Source of the DNA: a virus | Direction: 5' to 3' (one strand) | IMG/VR virus record: IMGVR_UViG_3300042465_007929 | Span: 1 to 64,000 of that record | DNA: 64,000 nucleotides | Shown: positions 10,385 through 22,082 of the stretch, piece by piece | Position numbering within the stretch: position 1 is the first letter of the stretch | Layout of the letters: each line of letters opens with the position of its first letter | Translations under genes and position numbers: made by a program | Notes under the pieces: model-generated | What the model saw: the letters and a program-made list of their open reading frames with translations, nothing else | What the model was told of the DNA's origin: nothing | Databases searched by the model: none

Positions 10385-11281
10385 ATGTCAATAGATCTTG
10401 GAAATACCCCAGTAGGAACACCGCCGAATCCAACACAGCAAGAACAAATTCGTCTGGCGTTGGACGCTATTACTGATGCTCCTAGTGATGGTGAAAAGTA
10501 TGTGATGCAGGATGGACAATGGGTCTATCTGACTCCTCCGCCAAACAGAGCATATGACATTGATAACATTGTTCTTTTTGAAGAAGCAAGTGACATTATT
10601 CCAAATAATTGGACGAATACTAATCCCGTAGCAGTCGCTAGTGTTGACTTTAAATCAACTCTGACCAGTATCGGAGATGAGGCGTTCTATAGCTGCTCTG
10701 CCCTGACGAGCGTGACGATCCCTAACAGCGTGACCAGCATCGGGGATGATGTGTTCAATAGCTGCTCTGGTTTGACGAGCTTAACCATCGGCAACGGCGT
10801 AACAACTATTGGTAGTGTAAATACAGCATATTCTGGTGCGTTCTATTTATGCACAAGCCTAACGAGCGTGACGATTCCTGACAGCGTCACAAGTCTCGGT
10901 AGTTATTCATTTTATGGCTGTTACGATTTAGTAAGCGTCGTGCTTGGAAATGGATTGACAACTATTAACAACGGTACGTTCCAGTACTGCTCCAGTCTGA
11001 CGAGCATCACGATCCCCAACAGCGTCACCAGCATAGGCAATTATGCGTTCCAAGCCTGCACTGTCTTGACGAGCGTGACGATCCCCAACAGCGTAACTAG
11101 CATCGGACTAAATGCGTTTGCATACAGCGGCCTAACAAGTATCTCTTGCTTGGCAACTACCGCACCAACAATCGGAACTGATGCTTTTTTAAATGTTCTG
11201 GCAACTGAGATTCACGTTCCATTTGGAGCCACTGGATACGGCACAACATATGGTGGCTTGACAGTAATTGCTAATCTTTAA
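10385..11281 (+). CDS. BspA-type leucine-rich-repeat protein, copy 1
   Basis: The 298-aa product has an N-terminal module (about 1-50, starting MSIDLGNTPVGTPP) shared with the next two genes. A DxxxxIIPNNWT linker follows, then 23-residue LRR_5 repeats of the type LTSVTIPNSVTSIGDYAF. A conserved C-terminal cap contains TEIHVPFGATGYGTTYGGLT. No signal peptide or membrane segment is present, so it fits a virion-attached binding protein better than a secreted one. The repeat region looks richer in G+C than the flanks. Function is inferred as host-surface or polymer binding. Confidence 0.8.
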   Translation: MSIDLGNTPVGTPPNPTQQEQIRLALDAITDAPSDGEKYVMQDGQWVYLTPPPNRAYDIDNIVLFEEASDIIPNNWTNTNPVAVASVDFKSTLTSIGDEAFYSCSALTSVTIPNSVTSIGDDVFNSCSGLTSLTIGNGVTTIGSVNTAYSGAFYLCTSLTSVTIPDSVTSLGSYSFYGCYDLVSVVLGNGLTTINNGTFQYCSSLTSITIPNSVTSIGNYAFQACTVLTSVTIPNSVTSIGLNAFAYSGLTSISCLATTAPTIGTDAFLNVLATEIHVPFGATGYGTTYGGLTVIANL

Positions 11282-11310
11282 CACATACAACAATTTTTAA
11301 TTAATTTATT

Positions 11311-12252
11311 ATGGCAATCGATTTAGGAAATACTCCAATAGGAACACCACCCACAACAGGACAAAAGCAACAGATGCGTCAAGCTCTAGTTGCAGTTGGT
11401 AATGCTCCTATTGATGATGAAAAGTATGTTATGTTAGATGGAGAATGGGTCTTCTTGATTCCTAATCAGGCATATGATATTAATAATGTTGTTCTTGTAG
11501 AAGAAACTAGTAATATAATTCCCGACAGTTGGACCAGTGATTATGCTGCTGATGTTACTAGTATACGTTTAATTCCTACATTAACAAGCATCGGAAGTTA
11601 TGCGTTTCAGTCCTGCATTGGCCTGACAAGCGTGACCCTTCCAAACAGCCTTACCAGCATCGGGAGTAATGCGTTCAACTACTGCATCAGCCTGACGAGC
11701 ATAACGATCCCCAATAGCGTCACTAGCATCGGGAGTGATGCGTTTAGTTACTGCGGTCTAACAAGTATCACTGTACCCGCTAGCGTAACTAGCATTGGGA
11801 GTACAGCGTTTGGATACAACCCCAGCCTAACAAGCGCAATTATTAATAATGGCGTTCCATATATTTCCGACGAAATGTTCGGAGGTTGTGGTAACTTAAC
11901 GAGTGTCACTATACCCAACAGCGTCACCTACATCGGAGATTATTCGTTCGGAGGCTGTGGTAGCTTGACGAGTGTGACGATACCAGCCAGTGTAACTATT
12001 CTCAGGTCACAGGCGTTCAAAAGCTGCACTGGCCTGACGAGCGTGACGATCCCTAACAGCGTCACTAGCATCGGACTAGATGCGTTCCAAAACTGCGCCA
12101 GTCTAAGCAGTATCTCTTGCTTGGCAACTACCGCACCAACAATCGGAACTGATGCTTTCTTTGGCGTTTTGGCAACTGAGATTCATGTCCCAATTGGAGC
12201 CACTGGATATGGAACAACGTATGGAGGACTAACAGTCATCGCAGATCTTTGA
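11311..12252 (+). CDS. BspA-type leucine-rich-repeat protein, copy 2
   Basis: The 313-aa product has the same three-part plan as its neighbours: shared N-terminal module (MAIDLGNTPIGTPP), LRR_5 repeats of about 23 residues, and the C-terminal cap. Repeat number and some repeat sequences differ from copy 1, including a non-consensus unit around ISDEMFGGCGNLTS. It is a tandem duplicate that has diverged by repeat gain, loss or exchange. Confidence 0.8.
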   Translation: MAIDLGNTPIGTPPTTGQKQQMRQALVAVGNAPIDDEKYVMLDGEWVFLIPNQAYDINNVVLVEETSNIIPDSWTSDYAADVTSIRLIPTLTSIGSYAFQSCIGLTSVTLPNSLTSIGSNAFNYCISLTSITIPNSVTSIGSDAFSYCGLTSITVPASVTSIGSTAFGYNPSLTSAIINNGVPYISDEMFGGCGNLTSVTIPNSVTYIGDYSFGGCGSLTSVTIPASVTILRSQAFKSCTGLTSVTIPNSVTSIGLDAFQNCASLSSISCLATTAPTIGTDAFFGVLATEIHVPIGATGYGTTYGGLTVIADL

Positions 12253-12283
12253 CGCACATAACAATTTTTAACTTATACTTATC

Positions 12284-13624
12284 ATGGCAATCGATTTAGG
12301 AAATACACCAGTAGGAACACCACCTACATTAGGACAGCAGCAGCAAATACGCGACGCGACTGGCATGATTACTTTTCCGCAAAATGACGGTAAGAAATAT
12401 GTTCGTCTAAATGAAGAATGGGTTCTATTGGCTGTTTATGCGGAGAGTACAGTCTATGACTCAGGCGATGCGGTTGTTTTCACGGAAGCAAGCAATGCTA
12501 TTCCAGATGCTTGGACGTTTAGTGATCGTGAGGCAGTCGCTAGTGTTGACTTTAAATCAACTCTGACCAGCATCGGGAATAATGCGTTCAACTACTGCTC
12601 TGGCCTGACGAGCATTACAATTCCTAATAGCGTGACCAGTCTCGGAGAGGGAGCGTTCTGGGGCTGCTCTGGCTTGACGAGTGTGACGATCCCTAATAGC
12701 GTGACCAGCCTTGGGAGTAGAGCGTTCTATGACTGTGGTGGCCTGACGAGTGTGACGATTGGCAGCGGCGTTACAACGATTAGCAGTAGTGCGTTTGGTT
12801 ACTGCGGCCTAACGAGCCTAACTATCCCCAACAGTGTCACTAGCATCGCGTATGGGGCGTTCTACAGTTGCACTTCCCTGACGAGCGTGACGATCCCGAA
12901 CAGCGTCACTAGCATCGGCGATTATGCATTCTATCGATGCTCTAGCCTGACGAGCGTGACAATCCCCGACAGCGTCACCAGCATCGGGAGTTATGCGTTC
13001 TATGCTTGCTCTGCCCTAACCAGCGTAACAATTCCTAGCAGCGTTACAACGATTGGCAGTAATGCGTTTGGTTACTGCAATAGCCTGACAAACGTGACCA
13101 TCGGTAGCGGCGTTACCAACATCGGGAGTTATTCATTCTATAATTGTGTTAGTCTAACTGCAATCACGGTTAGTTCACTTAATCTTATATATTCAAGTGT
13201 AGATGGAGTTTTATTCGACAAGGATCAAATTACTCTACTTCAATATCCAGAAGGCAACCCCGAATTAACATATTCTATACCCAATAGTGTCATAATTTTA
13301 GAAGGCAATGCTTTCGCTAATTGCCATAACCTGACGAGCGTGATAATTCCCAATAGCGTCACCACCATCGAGACTGCCGCGTTCTTCAACGCCTCTAGCC
13401 TGACAAGCGTGACGATTGGTAGCGGCGTGACCAGCATCGGGGGTCAGGCGTTCTATGGATGCACTAGTCTAAACTATATCGCTTGTTTGGCAACTAACGC
13501 TCCAACAATCCCAATCGACGATGGTGTTTTCGGCAATATTCTGGCAACTGAGATTCATGTTCCAATTGGAGCTACTGGATATGGTACAATTTATGGTGGA
13601 TTAAATGTAGTTCAGGACATATAA
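12284..13624 (+). CDS. BspA-type leucine-rich-repeat protein, copy 3 (longest)
   Basis: The 446-aa product keeps the shared N-terminal module and the C-terminal cap, with more LRR_5 units than copies 1 and 2. One interruption near residues 295-330 (SSVDGVLFDKDQITLLQYP) is the typical BspA insertion seen in bacterial and protist LRR_5 surface proteins. The gene lies 10 nt before the sulfotransferase gene, so the cluster may be one transcript. Confidence 0.8.
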   Translation: MAIDLGNTPVGTPPTLGQQQQIRDATGMITFPQNDGKKYVRLNEEWVLLAVYAESTVYDSGDAVVFTEASNAIPDAWTFSDREAVASVDFKSTLTSIGNNAFNYCSGLTSITIPNSVTSLGEGAFWGCSGLTSVTIPNSVTSLGSRAFYDCGGLTSVTIGSGVTTISSSAFGYCGLTSLTIPNSVTSIAYGAFYSCTSLTSVTIPNSVTSIGDYAFYRCSSLTSVTIPDSVTSIGSYAFYACSALTSVTIPSSVTTIGSNAFGYCNSLTNVTIGSGVTNIGSYSFYNCVSLTAITVSSLNLIYSSVDGVLFDKDQITLLQYPEGNPELTYSIPNSVIILEGNAFANCHNLTSVIIPNSVTTIETAAFFNASSLTSVTIGSGVTSIGGQAFYGCTSLNYIACLATNAPTIPIDDGVFGNILATEIHVPIGATGYGTIYGGLNVVQDI

Positions 13625-16579: not shown

Positions 16580-17284
16580 ATGAATGTATTATACACTGAG
16601 CTAGATTTTTCTCAAGCTAAATTAAGTGATAAATTAAAATTAAAGTGTTTAACGTGTAATGGTATTTTTTTAAAAAAGAAAAAATATATTATAGATATAA
16701 TAAATCGAGGAGGTCATTTTACTAAAGCTGGAACTGGAGATTTTTGCTCTCATAAATGCTCTTCTTTTTCAAAAGTAAAAGCAAAAGAATGTTCTTGTGT
16801 GAATTGTAATAAATCTTTTATTAAAAAACAAAGTCAAATTAAAAAAACTTCAAATCATTTCTGTTCTAGTTCTTGTGCCGCTTCTTATAATAATAAGAAT
16901 AAAACTCATGGAACTAGAAGATCTAAATTAGAAACTTGGTTAGAAGAAAAACTTACTAATCTTTATCCAAATTTAGAAATACATTTTAATCGTAAAGATA
17001 CAATTAATTCTGAATTAGACATTTATATACCATCTTTTAAATTGGCTGTAGAACTCAATGGAATTTTTCACTATGAACCAATACATGGGATAGAAAAATT
17101 AGAGAAAATACAAAATAATGATGAAAGAAAATTTCAAGCCTGTTTAGAACGAGGTATAGAATTTTGTATTATAGATACTTCTGGTCAAAAGTATTTTAAA
17201 GAATCAACATCTCAGAAATTTTTAAATATTATCTGTGATATAATAAAATCAAAAGAAATGAAGGCGGTGTCAGATTCGAACTGA
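16580..17284 (+). CDS. Homing endonuclease, multiple zinc fingers plus VSR-like nuclease (234 aa)
   Basis: Residues about 20-110 hold paired CxxC/CxxxC fingers (CLTCNGIF, CSHKCSS, CVNCNKSF, CSSSCAAS). The C-terminal part has ELDIYIPSFKLAVELNGIFH then ERKFQACLERGIEFCIID, matching the VSR/EDxHD-type nuclease plan seen in the enzyme at 14939-15595. It is the only plus-strand gene among minus-strand tRNAs. Its final codons (MKAVSDSN, stop) read into the 3' end of the tRNA-Ser gene on the other strand, showing insertion right at the tRNA. Confidence 0.72.
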   Translation: MNVLYTELDFSQAKLSDKLKLKCLTCNGIFLKKKKYIIDIINRGGHFTKAGTGDFCSHKCSSFSKVKAKECSCVNCNKSFIKKQSQIKKTSNHFCSSSCAASYNNKNKTHGTRRSKLETWLEEKLTNLYPNLEIHFNRKDTINSELDIYIPSFKLAVELNGIFHYEPIHGIEKLEKIQNNDERKFQACLERGIEFCIIDTSGQKYFKESTSQKFLNIICDIIKSKEMKAVSDSN

Positions 17285-17983: not shown

Positions 17984-19306
17984 ATGTCTTCCCCTGAATA
18001 TACTTTTAATCATCTTGGCCAATTATCTCATACTGCGGCAACAATGCCTTGCATATATGATCGTACAAATGATGTGTATAGACCTATAGAAAAAAGTGAT
18101 TTAAGTTTCACTAATTCAGAAGCGCCAACTAATTTTGATGCTTTTGGAAGAATGAGGGTTTGTGAACCATTAACTCTTTTTGAAAGTCAACACAGATATA
18201 GTGATAACGGAAAATGGAATAATCTAATTAGTGGCACTGCTGCAAGTAATTATTTAATAAATGAAAGCTCTGTTCAATTAACCGCTTCAAATGGTGGTTC
18301 AATCACAAGAGAAAGTAATTTAGTTTTCAATTATCAAGCTGGTAAAAGCTTATTGATAATGAGTAGCTTTGCATTTAGCGCATCAACTGTTGGTGTTGAA
18401 CAACGTATAGGATATTTTAATGCATCAAATGGAATTTATCTTTTACAAGATGGACACACAGATGGTGCTGCATTTGTTTTAAGAAGTTATGCTTCTGGCT
18501 CCGTAGTTGAAAGAACGATTCGCCAAAAAGATTGGAATTTTGATAAATTTGATGGAAATGGTGGTTCTGGCCGTGTATTGGATTTGACTAAAGCTAATAT
18601 ATTTTGGATGGACATAGAATGGTTGGGCGTAGGTGCAGTTCGTTGCGGTTTCGTTGTCGATGGAAAATTAATATTGGGTCATATATTTTATAATGATAAT
18701 CGCAATAATACTGTTTATATGACAACCGCAATTTTACCATTAAGGTATTCTTTGTCTAATTCAACAGCTACTAGTCCATTTATCAAACAAATATGTAATA
18801 CAGTAATTAGTGAAGGCGGACATAATCCTGAGTCAATTACATATAATCAAGAATCATCACCAATAACTATTCAACGTACTACATCGTCAGCCGCTGGAGA
18901 TAAAGGAAAATCATATAATGCTATTTCAATACGTTTGACATCTGGAAAATTAGATGGGATAATTATACCTAATGGAATTTCTTTATTAAGTGATAGCGCA
19001 AAATTATATCAATGGTCATTAATTAAAAATGCAACATTTGTTACATCACCAACTTGGCTGGATCATTCTGCATGTATAACTACTCAATATACAGTTACTG
19101 ATTCACAAGTCACTGGAGGTGTGATTGTCAAAGCTGGATATATTACAAATGCTTCCGATTCTTTAGTTTTGAGTGATTTTGGAAGTACTCATTTGCAATT
19201 AGGAAGAACGCTAAGTGGGGTATCTGATACATATACTTTTGCTATAGCATCAGATGCTACTAGCGCAAAATTTAATGCAATTTTAAGTTGGTATCAAATA
19301 ATTTAA
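17984..19306 (+). CDS. Phage virion structural protein (marine-phage type)
   Basis: The 440-aa product matches a family I know from many marine T4-like and other phages. Characteristic stretches include NFDAFGRMRVCEPLTLFESQ, NGKWNN, YQAGKSLLIMSSF, IFWMDIEWLGVGAVRCGFV and QICNTVISEGG. These proteins are annotated as virion or decoration proteins of unknown exact location. It is an isolated plus-strand gene among minus-strand tRNA operons and ends at a strong terminator (19383-19414), so it is its own transcription unit. Confidence 0.8.
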   Translation: MSSPEYTFNHLGQLSHTAATMPCIYDRTNDVYRPIEKSDLSFTNSEAPTNFDAFGRMRVCEPLTLFESQHRYSDNGKWNNLISGTAASNYLINESSVQLTASNGGSITRESNLVFNYQAGKSLLIMSSFAFSASTVGVEQRIGYFNASNGIYLLQDGHTDGAAFVLRSYASGSVVERTIRQKDWNFDKFDGNGGSGRVLDLTKANIFWMDIEWLGVGAVRCGFVVDGKLILGHIFYNDNRNNTVYMTTAILPLRYSLSNSTATSPFIKQICNTVISEGGHNPESITYNQESSPITIQRTTSSAAGDKGKSYNAISIRLTSGKLDGIIIPNGISLLSDSAKLYQWSLIKNATFVTSPTWLDHSACITTQYTVTDSQVTGGVIVKAGYITNASDSLVLSDFGSTHLQLGRTLSGVSDTYTFAIASDATSAKFNAILSWYQII

Positions 19307-19422: not shown

Positions 19423-19497
19423 TGGAGCATCTTGTCCGATTCGAACGGACGACCTGCTCATTACAAATGAGCTGCACTACCACTGTGCTAAAGATGC
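19423..19497 (-). tRNA. tRNA-Thr, anticodon TGT
   Basis: Acceptor GCATCTT pairs with AAGATGC, the anticodon loop is TTTGTAA on GCTCA/TGAGC and CCA is encoded. It reads ACA. Confidence 0.92.
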
Positions 19498-19505
19498 ATA
19501 AAAAT

Positions 19506-19580
19506 TGGCTCCAAAGGTAGGGATCGAACCTACGACCTAGAAATTAACAGTTTCTCGCACTTCCGCTGTGCTACTTTGGA
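19506..19580 (-). tRNA. tRNA-Asn, anticodon GTT
   Basis: Acceptor TCCAAAG pairs with CTTTGGA, the anticodon loop is CTGTTAA on AGAAA/TTTCT, the discriminator is G and CCA is encoded. Confidence 0.93.
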
Positions 19581-19587
19581 TTTTTAT

Positions 19588-19821
19588 TTATAAAATTTCT
19601 GGATTATTGGAATTTCTTTTATTTCTTTGGATAGCTTTTCCAAGCTTTATAATCTCATTAATCACTTCTGGTGAAAAAGAATCTAAGCTGTTCTTTTGTC
19701 TTCTTTGAATGGCTTTTTCAGCTCTGCATTGCTTGCATCTATAATTTCCATTTCGTCCTAAAACAAAATCTTGCTCTCCGTGTTTTTCGCAAATCTGTTT
19801 AATAATTTTTGGTTGTTCCAT
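19588..19821 (-). CDS. Zinc-knuckle protein, probable N-terminal remnant of an HNH endonuclease (77 aa)
   Basis: The N-terminus has CEKHGEQDFVLGRNGNYRCK with CxxC, followed by KAIQRRQK. This is the zinc-binding start of phage HNH endonucleases that normally continue into a CxxC...HxxH nuclease core. Here the core is absent and the protein ends in a charged helix. It is either a truncated endonuclease or a small DNA-binding protein derived from one. It sits between tRNA-Asn and the giant RNA region. Confidence 0.6.
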   Translation of the reverse strand: MEQPKIIKQICEKHGEQDFVLGRNGNYRCKQCRAEKAIQRRQKNSLDSFSPEVINEIIKLGKAIQRNKRNSNNPEIL

Positions 19822-20293
19822 ACTATTATATACACACCAACTAAATTAATTAATTTTATTAAAAACAAAAAAAAAGCTAATCTATCGCTGAAGAAGTCCT
19901 CCATATCCACAGAGGTTAATGATCCTTCTTCACTTTTCTACAAATACTAACTCGCTGGAAATTTCCTGTCTGTTTTTTCTGAATACTTCGGGCGATCAAA
20001 CGCACGATAGAAATTGGATTTGCGGCTCAGGTCGCTATCACTCACAATGATTGACATTAAAGTCAGCTATATAAGATTGCTCCTTGTGAAAACGTCTTGG
20101 TTCACGATGACCCCTCAATGACCGCAAAAGTATTTATCTGTCAGACCTTTTACTAAAATATGCCCCTCGCGCATATATGACATCTTCGCTGGTTCACGGA
20201 TGGGCCACTTTGTAGCGATTCACATCGCCTCAGACGGATTCCCAGCATAGGTCTTCATAGCCGTATGTAGATATTCTCGACAGATAAAAAATG

Positions 20294-20402
20294 TAGAAGA
20301 AACTGGATTCGAACCAATATTGTATCATATTGCCTAAGCAATCAAGGAATCAAACCTTGTCGAACAACTGCCGTTGTTGCATTTCCATTATGCTATTCTT
20401 CT
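20294..20402 (-). tRNA. tRNA-like element with expanded, anticodon-less centre
   Basis: The ends look like a tRNA: acceptor AGAAGAA/TTCTTCT, D-arm GCAT...ATGC with a GG loop, T-arm ATTGG/CCAGT around TTCGAAT. Total length is 109 nt instead of about 75. In place of one anticodon arm there are three hairpins: AACAAC/GTTGTT, CAAGG/CCTTG (loop TTTGATT, itself T-arm-like) and ATTGC/GCAAT. No normal 7-nt anticodon loop can be assigned, and CCA is not encoded. It lies within the giant RNA region and is probably structural rather than a decoding tRNA. Confidence 0.5.
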
Positions 20403-20560
20403 GAAAGTTGTGCAGTACTCTCCTGCTGTCACACCCATAATCCATAGTTGCGACCTATAAGATCTAGCTGATGTTTCTAAAATTTAGAATGACTGAGATG
20501 TCTAATCTAGGACTCTCAAATAGCGGTCTTCATTAAAGATATGCCCTCAGCCATTCAGTT

Positions 20561-20597
20561 GTCCATAGGGTGTGCATCCCATCGCCTCAAGCAGGAC
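20561..20597 (-). repeat. Giant-RNA hairpin module, copy 3
   Basis: GTCC...GGAC encloses TGCTTGAGGCGA and an inner hairpin closed by GGG/CCC. The conserved outer text is GCCAGTCCTGCTTGA and TATGGAC, shared with the copies at 20728-20765 and 20801-20836. Confidence 0.65.
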
Positions 20598-20727
20598 TGG
20601 CTCTACCTAGTACTATAACCATTACCATAGGTGGTTTCTTTACGGTATATTCCTATTCGCCAAGGAAGTAAAGAACGGTTAGACGAAAGTAGACCAATTG
20701 CCCGCCTAAGCAGGCAATTGGAATGTT

Positions 20728-20765
20728 GTCCATGGCATCATTCGATGCTTACGTTCACGCAGGAC
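20728..20765 (-). repeat. Giant-RNA hairpin module, copy 2
   Basis: GTCC...GGAC encloses TGCGTGAACGTA and the inner hairpin GCATC-GAAT-GATGC. The conserved outer text is GCCAGTCCTGCGTGA and CATGGAC. Confidence 0.65.
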
Positions 20766-20800
20766 TGGCACTAGCTAATGGTTAGCCCACATTAGTCAGG

Positions 20801-20836
20801 GTCCATAGAGTATTCACTCTTCGATTCAAGCAGGAC
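20801..20836 (-). repeat. Giant-RNA hairpin module, copy 1
   Basis: GTCC...GGAC encloses TGCTTGAATCGA and the inner hairpin GAGT-GAAT-ACTC. The conserved outer text is GCCAGTCCTGCTTGA and TATGGAC. Inner hairpin sequences differ between copies while pairing is kept, which supports RNA structure. Confidence 0.65.
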
Positions 20837-21103
20837 TGGCATTATCTATGGATATCCTCATAGCAGGAGAAGGAAGCCCATAACCTTCGTAAGGCTTTTT
20901 GGTATCTACAATGTATGGTTATTGACCCACACGGAATTTCAAGCCTGTAAGCATAACTTAATATGCTCCTAACTCACCGATTTCCATTGTAAAAATAATC
21001 TCTACCGTTAAACCGACTTTCACTGGTCACGAATTCTTCGCAAATTAAATTTGCTTCACTGGTAGAGTCGCCAACGCATCGTAATCGAATACATTAGCAA
21101 AAT

Positions 21104-21178
21104 TGGCGAGCAGGCGGGAATCTAACCCGCGATCTTTAGCCTATGGGTCTAACGCTTTATACACTAAGCTACTGCTCC
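21104..21178 (-). tRNA. tRNA with anticodon CAT (second copy type)
   Basis: The T-arm is GCGGG/CCCGC around TTAGATT, the centre of the anticodon loop CCCATAG is CAT, and CCA is encoded. The acceptor has six clear pairs (GAGCAG/CTGCTC) plus an unpaired 5' G. An unpaired position 1 is an initiator feature, but the loop has C at position 33, so Met type is unsure. Confidence 0.78.
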
Positions 21179-21189
21179 TAAAAATTGAT

Positions 21190-21259
21190 TGCGGGTAGTA
21201 GATTCGAACTACTGTGAAATGCTTATGAGACACCTATCTGAACCACTCGATTAACCCGC
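21190..21259 (-). tRNA. tRNA with anticodon CAT (third)
   Basis: Acceptor GCGGGT pairs with ACCCGC, the anticodon loop is CTCATAA on GGTGT/GCATT, and the T-arm is AGTAG/CTACT around TTCGAAT. It is short (70 nt) with a weak D-stem and no encoded CCA. Confidence 0.75.
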
Positions 21260-21268
21260 GATTAAATA

Positions 21269-21375
21269 CTTTTTAATAGTAAGTCTTTGTCGTTTTCAAA
21301 TCCCTACCTGAATACACAGTTTAAGATTTTCCTACTTACAGAACGGAGCGTGAAGCTCCTTTTCCTATTAAAAAG
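21269..21375 (-). ncRNA. Compact structured RNA element (three-stem)
   Basis: CTTTTTAATAG and CTATTAAAAAG form a perfect 11-bp closing stem. Inside are a hairpin, GGAGC/GCTCC, and a second stem, GTAAGT/ACTTAC. On the minus strand it lies between the promoter at 21483-21511 and the first tRNA, so it would be the leader of the tRNA/giant-RNA transcript. It could guide processing or be a regulatory leader. Confidence 0.5.
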
Positions 21376-21482
21376 CAAAACTAATAATAAAAATAATAAT
21401 ATGAAAGAGCAAATTTTCCTCCAACCGATGATTTGAGGCAATCTTTTGAACCTGACTTAGCCCTGCTCAATTGATATAATTA

Positions 21483-21511
21483 GTTATAGACGATTTTGGG
21501 GTTTTTGTCAA
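21483..21511 (-). promoter_or_regulatory. Sigma70-type promoter for the tRNA/giant-RNA transcript
   Basis: On the minus strand, TTGACA (21506-21511) and TATAAC (21483-21488) are spaced by 17 bp. It lies just after the HNH gene and before a coding-free stretch, so it most likely transcribes the structured leader, two CAT tRNAs and the giant RNA. Confidence 0.75.
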
Positions 21512-21518
21512 CAGTTTT

Positions 21519-22082
21519 TTACAAAAACTTTTCCCACTCTTTTCTGATACTTGGAACATGAAGGAAAACGCTAGGAATACTAGGCGCTTTCACGATTTCA
21601 TTTTTTACATTATAGTAAGGAGTATGACTAGCCTTTTTTTGATTACATTGAAGACAGGCAAGAGTCCTATTATCATGTTCATCTGTGCCGCCTTTACTTT
21701 TTGGCTTGATATGATCAATAGTAAGATCTGCAACACTAAACTTCTCTAAGCAATATTGGCAAGTAGAATTATAAATTTTAGCTAATTCAACTAGAGAAAA
21801 CCTTTTCTTCTTTGGTCTTTTGAAAAATCTGCTAGTAACAACAATTACTGTTGGAATTGGCCATGATTTCTTTGCACTGCGAAGAACTGGTTGATCTCCA
21901 TAGAATTCAGCATTAGTATTCCACTTATCTACAGAATCAAATAAATTATAATTCTTATCTAGCGCCGAAATATTACCACTTAATAGATGCGCGAAAGCTG
22001 CTTTTGCTGTGATAGCAGTAACAGGTTGCCACGCATTATTAAGAAGAAGAGTTGTTTTAGTGTTGCAGTCTACGATATTCAT
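21519..22082 (-). CDS. HNH endonuclease (187 aa)
   Basis: Residues about 108-155 form an HNH core: CQYCLEKF, then LTIDHIKPKSKGGTDEHDNR, then CLQCNQKKA, with the Cys pairs binding zinc and the DH/H/N residues catalytic. The N-terminal 90 residues (LLNNAWQPVTAITAKAA) resemble the fixed N-terminus of stand-alone HNH proteins often found in bacteria and phages. It overlaps thyX by 4 nt. Its role may be homing, or DNA processing in packaging. Confidence 0.82.
   Translation of the reverse strand: MNIVDCNTKTTLLLNNAWQPVTAITAKAAFAHLLSGNISALDKNYNLFDSVDKWNTNAEFYGDQPVLRSAKKSWPIPTVIVVTSRFFKRPKKKRFSLVELAKIYNSTCQYCLEKFSVADLTIDHIKPKSKGGTDEHDNRTLACLQCNQKKASHTPYYNVKNEIVKAPSIPSVFLHVPSIRKEWEKFL

What the first reader, a model, noticed from the sequence alone, without database searches (positions are those of the whole stretch)
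19867..21100. About 1.2 kb with no gene but dense RNA structure: candidate giant phage RNA
Seen in sequence: no credible reading frame, many long perfect stems, a tRNA-like element, three diverged copies of one hairpin module, a nine-U end and a strong promoter plus two CAT tRNAs upstream on the same strand. Known: very large ornate RNAs (GOLLD, ROOL) lie beside phage tRNA genes. Inference: this is a member, or a new relative, of that kind of RNA.
Basis: partly seen in the sequence, partly recalled or inferred. Interest (0 to 1): 0.88.

Follow-up and report, generated by a model that had tools for sequence, protein, structure and literature searches.

The report
Small RNA genes in phage tRNA array
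This stretch of a virus that infects bacteria is not one giant RNA but a row of about ten different small folded RNA genes, packed between tRNA genes and shared in varying combinations by at least 17 viral DNA fragments; none of the non-tRNA ones matches a known RNA family, and what they do is still open.

Summary
The "giant RNA, GOLLD/ROOL relative" reading is not supported. No Rfam family except tRNA matches; GOLLD and ROOL give nothing even at E<=10, while ROOL was found in a positive control. Homologues in 16 other IMG/VR arrays show a string of autonomous modules (A, C, D, E x3, M, F, tRNA-like G, H, I, J), most closed by their own terminal helix, separated by a few A/U-rich bases. In relatives, single modules sit alone between complete tRNA genes (H between tRNA-Gln and tRNA-Ile in L260; I between tRNA-Ala and tRNA-Ile in L269), order can change, and tRNAs, tmRNA and protein ORFs lie between modules, not inside those traced. 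Covariation is strong within modules (H: 17 of 32 pairs with two-sided changes; I: 9 of 19) and not seen between them. Best reading: a polycistronic tRNA/small-RNA operon whose modules are cut out as separate stable RNAs, like T4 rnaC and rnaD but far more elaborate. The families were not found in Rfam, nor by blastn in phage and plasmid collections. Expression and function are untested.

The parts
21483..21511 (-). promoter-like sequence TTGACA-17-TATAAC; L124 has TTGACA and an AT-rich -10 at the same place
21376..21482 (-). leader, partly conserved in L124, L243 and L244
21269..21375 (-). module A (CTTTTTAATAGG..CTATTAAAAAG)
   Evidence: 6 homologues, 11 of 30 pairs with two-sided changes
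21187..21261 (-). tRNA-Met (CAT)
21106..21178 (-). CAU tRNA-like element with C33 and atypical T-loop
   Evidence: Rfam tRNA 48.9 bits; not called by ARAGORN; homologues in L122, L250
20997..21098 (-). module C
   Evidence: 4 homologues, consensus fold of 32 pairs fully kept but too uniform to test covariation
20905..20995 (-). module D (TACAATG..CATTGTA)
   Evidence: 11 homologues, inner hairpin 4 of 5 pairs with two-sided changes
20872..20900 (-). short stem-like conserved block following D (AAAAAGCC..GGGCTTCC)
20801..20866 (-). hairpin module E, copy 1
20728..20799 (-). hairpin module E, copy 2
20692..20725 (-). module M, short form (CCAATTGCC..GGGCAATTGG); longer forms with changed but still complementary stems in L250, L258, L260
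20561..20691 (-). hairpin module E, copy 3, with a 5' extension
20487..20557 (-). module F (GAATGGCTGAG..CTCAGTCATTC)
   Evidence: 3 homologues
20292..20402 (-). module G, tRNA-like with an extra T-arm-like hairpin and six-base anticodon loop
   Evidence: Rfam tRNA 40.9 bits; homologue in L246, absent from L122
20133..20288 (-). module H (TTTATCTGTC..GACAGATAAA)
   Evidence: 12 homologues, 17 of 32 pairs with two-sided changes; CM R1
20019..20129 (-). module I (TTTTGCGGTC..GAGCCGCAAA)
   Evidence: 13 homologues, 9 of 19 pairs with two-sided changes
19882..20010 (-). module J (CTATCG..CGATAG)
   Evidence: 8 homologues, 3 of 31 pairs with two-sided changes
19867..19875 (-). nine-T run, possible terminator
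   Evidence: not picked up by the terminator scan
19423..19580 (-). tRNA-Asn and tRNA-Thr downstream on the same strand

Best explanation
The region is a polycistronic tRNA/small-RNA operon of a tailed phage. Shown by comparison: about ten different small structured RNA modules (roughly 30 to 165 nt), most closed by their own terminal helix, are strung between tRNA and tRNA-like genes with short A/U-rich spacers, and are gained, lost and reordered as units among related phages. Inferred: a promoter at about 21500 drives one precursor RNA; host tRNA-processing enzymes (RNase P, RNase Z, RNase E-type cuts in the AU spacers) release the tRNAs and each module; the modules persist as separate stable RNAs acting in trans during infection, the way T4 rnaC and rnaD lie in the T4 tRNA cluster. 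Most likely role (weak inference, about 25% on its own): accessory RNAs that support or protect the phage's translation set; they travel with tRNAs, tmRNA and degenerate CAU tRNA-likes, so some may be decoys or partners for tRNA-binding or tRNA-cutting host factors.
For: Single modules lie between complete tRNA genes within a few bases: L260 tRNA-Gln/H/tRNA-Ile, 7 nt each side; L269 tRNA-Ala/I/tRNA-Ile, 6 and 3 nt; L258, L260, L263, L268 tRNA-Pro followed directly by I. Order changes: I precedes H in L260. Module lengths are rigid (H 161-167 nt in 12, D 84-94 in 11) while gaps between neighbouring modules run from 0 to 1704 nt. The gaps hold tRNAs, a GIY-YIG endonuclease ORF in L245, other ORFs and, in L122, an antisense 110-aa ORF. 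Strong within-module covariation: H 17/32, I 9/19, A 11/30, D inner hairpin 4/5; in L260 six of eight pairs of the H closing helix changed on both sides and all still pair. No between-module helix has two or more covarying pairs, and counts equal permuted controls. G-U pairs fit the minus strand, that of the tRNAs. Annotated precedent: T4 rnaC and rnaD, 139 and 119 nt, 6 nt apart, next to tRNA-Arg.
Against: No RNA-seq: transcription, processing and stability are not shown. The between-module test rests on 6-10 sequences per pair, so a few long-range contacts could be missed. The order A-C-D-E-F-H-I-J is the same in most arrays, which a single RNA would also give. Function has no direct evidence. 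J has weaker covariation; C and F vary too little to test.
Confidence: 0.8

Rival explanations
1. One giant ornate RNA of a new class, working like GOLLD or ROOL: the modules are domains of a single ~1.2-1.6 kb molecule, joined by flexible AU linkers that tolerate inserted tRNAs and genes.
For: All modules contiguous in the window between a promoter-like sequence and a nine-T run; order mostly conserved; GOLLD also has a variable linker that can hold tRNAs and lies near tRNA islands (PMC12286853).
Against: H and I occur alone between complete tRNA genes and in changed order; inserted tRNAs must be cut out; an antisense ORF and ORFs with their own promoter-like sequences lie between modules; no between-module covariation; no GOLLD/ROOL match.
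Confidence: 0.12
2. The modules are cis elements of the tRNA operon precursor: processing or stability structures that help cut or protect the tRNA transcript and are then degraded.
For: Always co-oriented with tRNAs and packed with the same spacers.
Against: Long, complex and highly conserved folds with distinct sequences, carried in different combinations next to different tRNAs; most tRNA-tRNA junctions in the same arrays have none.
Confidence: 0.05
3. DNA-level elements (packaging, recombination or homing sites) that happen to be palindromic.
For: Homing endonucleases in or next to the arrays.
Against: Compensatory changes over long, interrupted helices and G-U pairs that fit one strand only; no simple palindromes shared between modules other than E.
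Confidence: 0.03

Closest known systems
Phage T4 small stable RNAs rnaC and rnaD (species 1 and 2 RNA)
   Same: Small RNAs of 139 and 119 nt on the tRNA strand at the end of a phage tRNA cluster, a few bases apart and next to a tRNA gene; the cluster also holds a homing endonuclease gene, segB.
   Different: No match between the T4 region and any tested module profile at E<=10 or CM R1. Here about ten modules in the window's array rather than two, in varying combinations, in other phages.
GOLLD RNA (RF02032)
   Same: Large non-coding stretch near phage tRNAs, downstream of a Met tRNA, with a tRNA-like insert that is present or absent.
   Different: No match at E<=10 in the whole record nor at gathering score in 16 related loci. 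Modules are separable and can be reordered, unlike one RNA with a conserved 3' domain.
ROOL RNA (RF03087)
   Same: Phage-associated, near tRNA islands, structured.
   Different: No match at E<=10, while the same search finds ROOL in pMP118 at 130 bits.
ICP1 ~800-nt abundant non-coding transcript (PMC7567579)
   Same: Long ORF-less phage region compared by its authors with GOLLD and ROOL.
   Different: ICP1 has no tRNAs according to that paper; our region has no blastn match in 50,697 phage records.
Phage tRNA arrays with tmRNA
   Same: Same gene arrangement: many tRNAs, sometimes tmRNA, small ORFs between.
   Different: Here extra non-tRNA structured RNAs are packed as array members.

Membership tests
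GOLLD (RF02032) | Match to the covariance model | tested here: not met
   No match at E<=10 in own record; none at gathering score in relatives. No GOLLD-positive genome was run as control.
[quoted passage not shown]
   The 3'-most module J is missing from the L124 and L244 arrays, which still carry D and H; modules separable and reordered.
GOLLD (RF02032) | 14-mer RNA cage in cryo-EM | not testable with these tools
   needs RNA synthesis and cryo-EM
ROOL (RF03087) | Match to the covariance model | tested here: not met
   No match at E<=10; positive control pMP118 130.4 bits.
Small stable RNAs of phage tRNA clusters (T4 rnaC/rnaD type) | Encoded within or at the edge of a phage tRNA cluster, same strand, short spacers | tested here: met
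   T4 layout
Small stable RNAs of phage tRNA clusters (T4 rnaC/rnaD type) | Self-contained conserved fold of about 100-170 nt | tested here: met
   H, I, A, D covariation
Small stable RNAs of phage tRNA clusters (T4 rnaC/rnaD type) | Detected as free stable RNA in infected cells | not testable with these tools
   no transcriptome; uncultured phage
Small stable RNAs of phage tRNA clusters (T4 rnaC/rnaD type) | Sequence homology to T4 rnaC or rnaD | tested here: not met
   No nhmmer hit of module profiles A, C, D, F, H, I, J to T4 70000-74500 at E<=10, no R1 hit: an analogue in arrangement, not a demonstrated homologue.
tRNA | Canonical tRNA features in the CAU element 21106-21178 and in G | tested here: not met
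   Rfam tRNA model matches (48.9 and 40.9 bits), but C33 and a T-loop without C56 in the first, and a six-base anticodon loop and extra T-arm-like hairpin in G (read from the sequence).

The most novel reading that the evidence does not exclude
The arrays encode a multi-part RNA machine: about ten separately processed small RNAs, each with its own conserved fold, that work together in trans with the phage tRNAs and tmRNA, for instance as a remodelled translation apparatus or an RNA-based shield against tRNA-directed defences.
Probability: 0.12. Interest if true: 0.9.

Novelty: new variant of a known kind. Interest (0 to 1): 0.66.

Why it matters
Long ORF-less stretches beside phage tRNA genes tend to be read as one giant ornate RNA. 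These arrays show another arrangement: a toolkit of many different small structured RNAs, inherited as interchangeable units like tRNAs, at least four of them supported by compensatory changes and none found in Rfam. They give well-bounded RNAs that can be synthesised, probed and tested, and they suggest that T4 rnaC and rnaD may be simple examples of a broader class.

Tried and rejected
GOLLD and ROOL covariance models: no match. Any other Rfam family at E<=10 in 19700-21560: only tRNAs and chance-level sub-threshold hits. blastn of the region in 50,697 phages and 72,556 plasmids: none, nor of the L249 array in phages; a stretch with I plus a tRNA matched only at the tRNA and H gave only chance hits. 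An 18-base H pattern in 84,980 cellular genomes gave 10 hits without homology around them. Global MFE z-score as evidence for structure: rejected, coding controls reach the same values. RNAalifold alone missed helix P3 of H; the structure was set by hand from the alignment, so its fit is partly by construction, and was then tested against shuffles and slid partners. CM R1 for H found nothing beyond the window and L260 in 60 sources, 1 Mb, and one copy in the whole record. A k-turn reading of the internal loop of I was considered but not claimed. A paper search for T4-cluster stable RNAs found nothing usable; the T4 record's annotation was used.

Full report
What was checked. The window is bases 1-64000 of a 139,990-bp IMG/VR virus record with lambda-J-like tail fibre, DnaB helicase and DNA polymerase genes. 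Between 19822 and 21518 there is no ORF of 60 aa or more on either strand. ARAGORN and Rfam see only tRNA-type elements. The three hairpin copies, the tRNA-like element, the nine-T run and the promoter-like sequence are all present. Thermodynamics alone do not single the region out: z is -2.2 on the minus strand and -3.2 on the plus strand, against +0.9 to -2.9 for ten coding stretches.

Relatives. A gapped pattern for the hairpin module found L122, and a protein search with the neighbouring virion protein gene (17984-19306) found L124. Conserved words from those led to more arrays. After setting aside near-identical contigs there are 17 arrays including the window: W, L122, L124, L242, L243, L244, L245, L246, L247, L249, L250, L252, L258, L260, L263, L268 and L269. 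By blastn, no record of the phage or plasmid collections matches the region, and one exact 18-base scan of cellular genomes gave only chance hits.

Anatomy. Aligning the arrays breaks the region into modules, most closed by their own terminal helix and followed by a spacer such as AATTTT, the same kind of spacer that follows the tRNAs. In window order on the minus strand: A, tRNA-Met, CAU tRNA-like, C, D, E1, E2, M, E3, F, tRNA-like G, H, I, J, nine-U run, then tRNA-Asn and tRNA-Thr further on. L122 lacks G and I and has an antisense 110-aa ORF between H and J; L124 lacks C, I, J and two of the three E copies; L246 lacks I. In L242, L245, L249 and L250, ORFs lie between H and I. In three of these the ORF follows the same promoter-like sequence (TTTACA-17-TATAAT), and L245 and L250 carry the same small protein there (no Pfam match for the L250 copy).

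One RNA or many? Four facts favour many. First, single modules are array members on their own: in L260 module H sits 7 nt from tRNA-Gln and 7 nt from tRNA-Ile; in L269 module I sits 6 nt from tRNA-Ala and 3 nt from tRNA-Ile; in L258, L260, L263 and L268 module I follows tRNA-Pro directly. Second, order is not fixed, as I precedes H in L260. Third, most module lengths are rigid (H 161-167 nt, A 115-120, D 84-94; I and J vary more, 120-180 and 142-184, by small internal indels) while gaps vary from 0 to 1704 nt. Fourth, a test for helices between modules found none with two or more covarying pairs, and the helix counts match those with permuted partners, whereas H, I and J each contain such helices. 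The last test has low power, with 6-10 sequences per pair, and it found no such helix inside A or D either because it demanded that every sequence pair.

Structure. For H (12 sequences) a 32-pair model has 99.5% of cells paired and 17 pairs with two-sided changes, against 5.5 in shuffles and at most 2 when partners are slid. In L260 the closing helix UAUCUGUC/GACAGAUA is replaced by AUUACGCU/AGCGUAAU: six of eight pairs changed on both sides and all still paired. For I (13 sequences) 9 of 19 pairs show two-sided changes. A shows 11 of 30. D shows 4 of 5 in its inner hairpin with a nearly invariant terminal helix. J is weaker, 3 of 31. C and F are too uniform to test. The models were drawn on the same alignments, so the percentage paired is partly by construction; the two-sided changes are the stronger evidence. 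G-U pairs kept or alternating with Watson-Crick pairs fit the minus strand as the RNA strand, that of the tRNAs.

Comparison with known RNAs. GOLLD and ROOL models do not match. The ROOL search works on a known carrier, pMP118, at 130 bits. No GOLLD-positive control was run. The annotated T4 record shows rnaC (139 nt) and rnaD (119 nt), 6 nt apart at the end of its tRNA cluster, with the homing endonuclease gene segB in the cluster. That is the same layout in miniature, without a sequence match. So the arrays resemble a T4-type tRNA/small-RNA cluster in layout, while the RNAs themselves are new families as far as these searches reach.

Mechanism. Shown: conserved folds for H, I, A and D; modules that come, go and move as units; co-location and co-orientation with tRNAs. 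Inferred: one precursor from the promoter at 21483-21511; cutting by tRNA-processing enzymes; stable free RNAs. Weakly inferred: a role in keeping phage translation working, possibly including decoys. The CAU tRNA-like elements in W, L122 and L250 and, as a second type, in L242, L243, L245, L249 and L252 all carry the loop CCCAUAG, with C at position 33, and a T-loop without C56, unlike a working tRNA yet conserved.

Limits. All relatives are uncultured metagenomic contigs, mostly fragments. Arrays were found through patterns from E, H, D, J, A and I, so arrays lacking all of these would be missed. E-values of R1 are rough. No expression data exist here.

Noticed in passing
L249 886-1266; L260 5175-5563; L263 1740-2070; L268 5311-5641: tmRNA genes inside the same phage tRNA arrays (Rfam 118-135 bits).
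   Followed up: partly
L260 800-990: A group I intron (Rfam 65.2 bits) that appears to interrupt the anticodon loop of a tRNA-Asn gene; L249 carries a matching stretch after its module J, and L124 6637-6838 holds another group I intron (59.3 bits).
   Followed up: partly
L242 1600-1866 (-), L249 3233-3427 (+), L250 2177-2398 (-): Unrelated small ORFs between modules H and I share one upstream promoter-like sequence, TTTACAAAGTAGCAAAACTATRTTATAATAA, a few bases before the ATG: looks like a cassette slot for leaderless genes.
   Followed up: no
window 21106-21178 (-); L122 5454-5527; L250 4882-4955 (-); second type in L242, L243, L245, L249, L252: Conserved CAU tRNA-like elements with C33 and an atypical T-loop; possible decoys.
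   Followed up: partly
L245 4311-4961; window 21519-22082 (-); window 16580-17284 (+): Homing endonucleases in or next to the arrays: GIY-YIG/SegE-like, HNH, homing endonuclease-like.
   Followed up: no
window 10385-13624 (+): Three neighbouring ORFs share the families phrog_35892 and phrog_18805: tandem related proteins of unknown function.
   Followed up: no
window 17984-19306 (+): Virion protein (phrog_1645) with relatives in cyanophages and Puniceispirillum phage HMO-2011 at about 40% identity, although the window otherwise looks siphovirus-like.
   Followed up: no
L268 5776-6678 (+): A 300-aa ORF in a tRNA array with a sub-threshold match to the RAP domain (19.6 bits, cut-off 24.2), a domain linked to RNA handling.
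   Followed up: no
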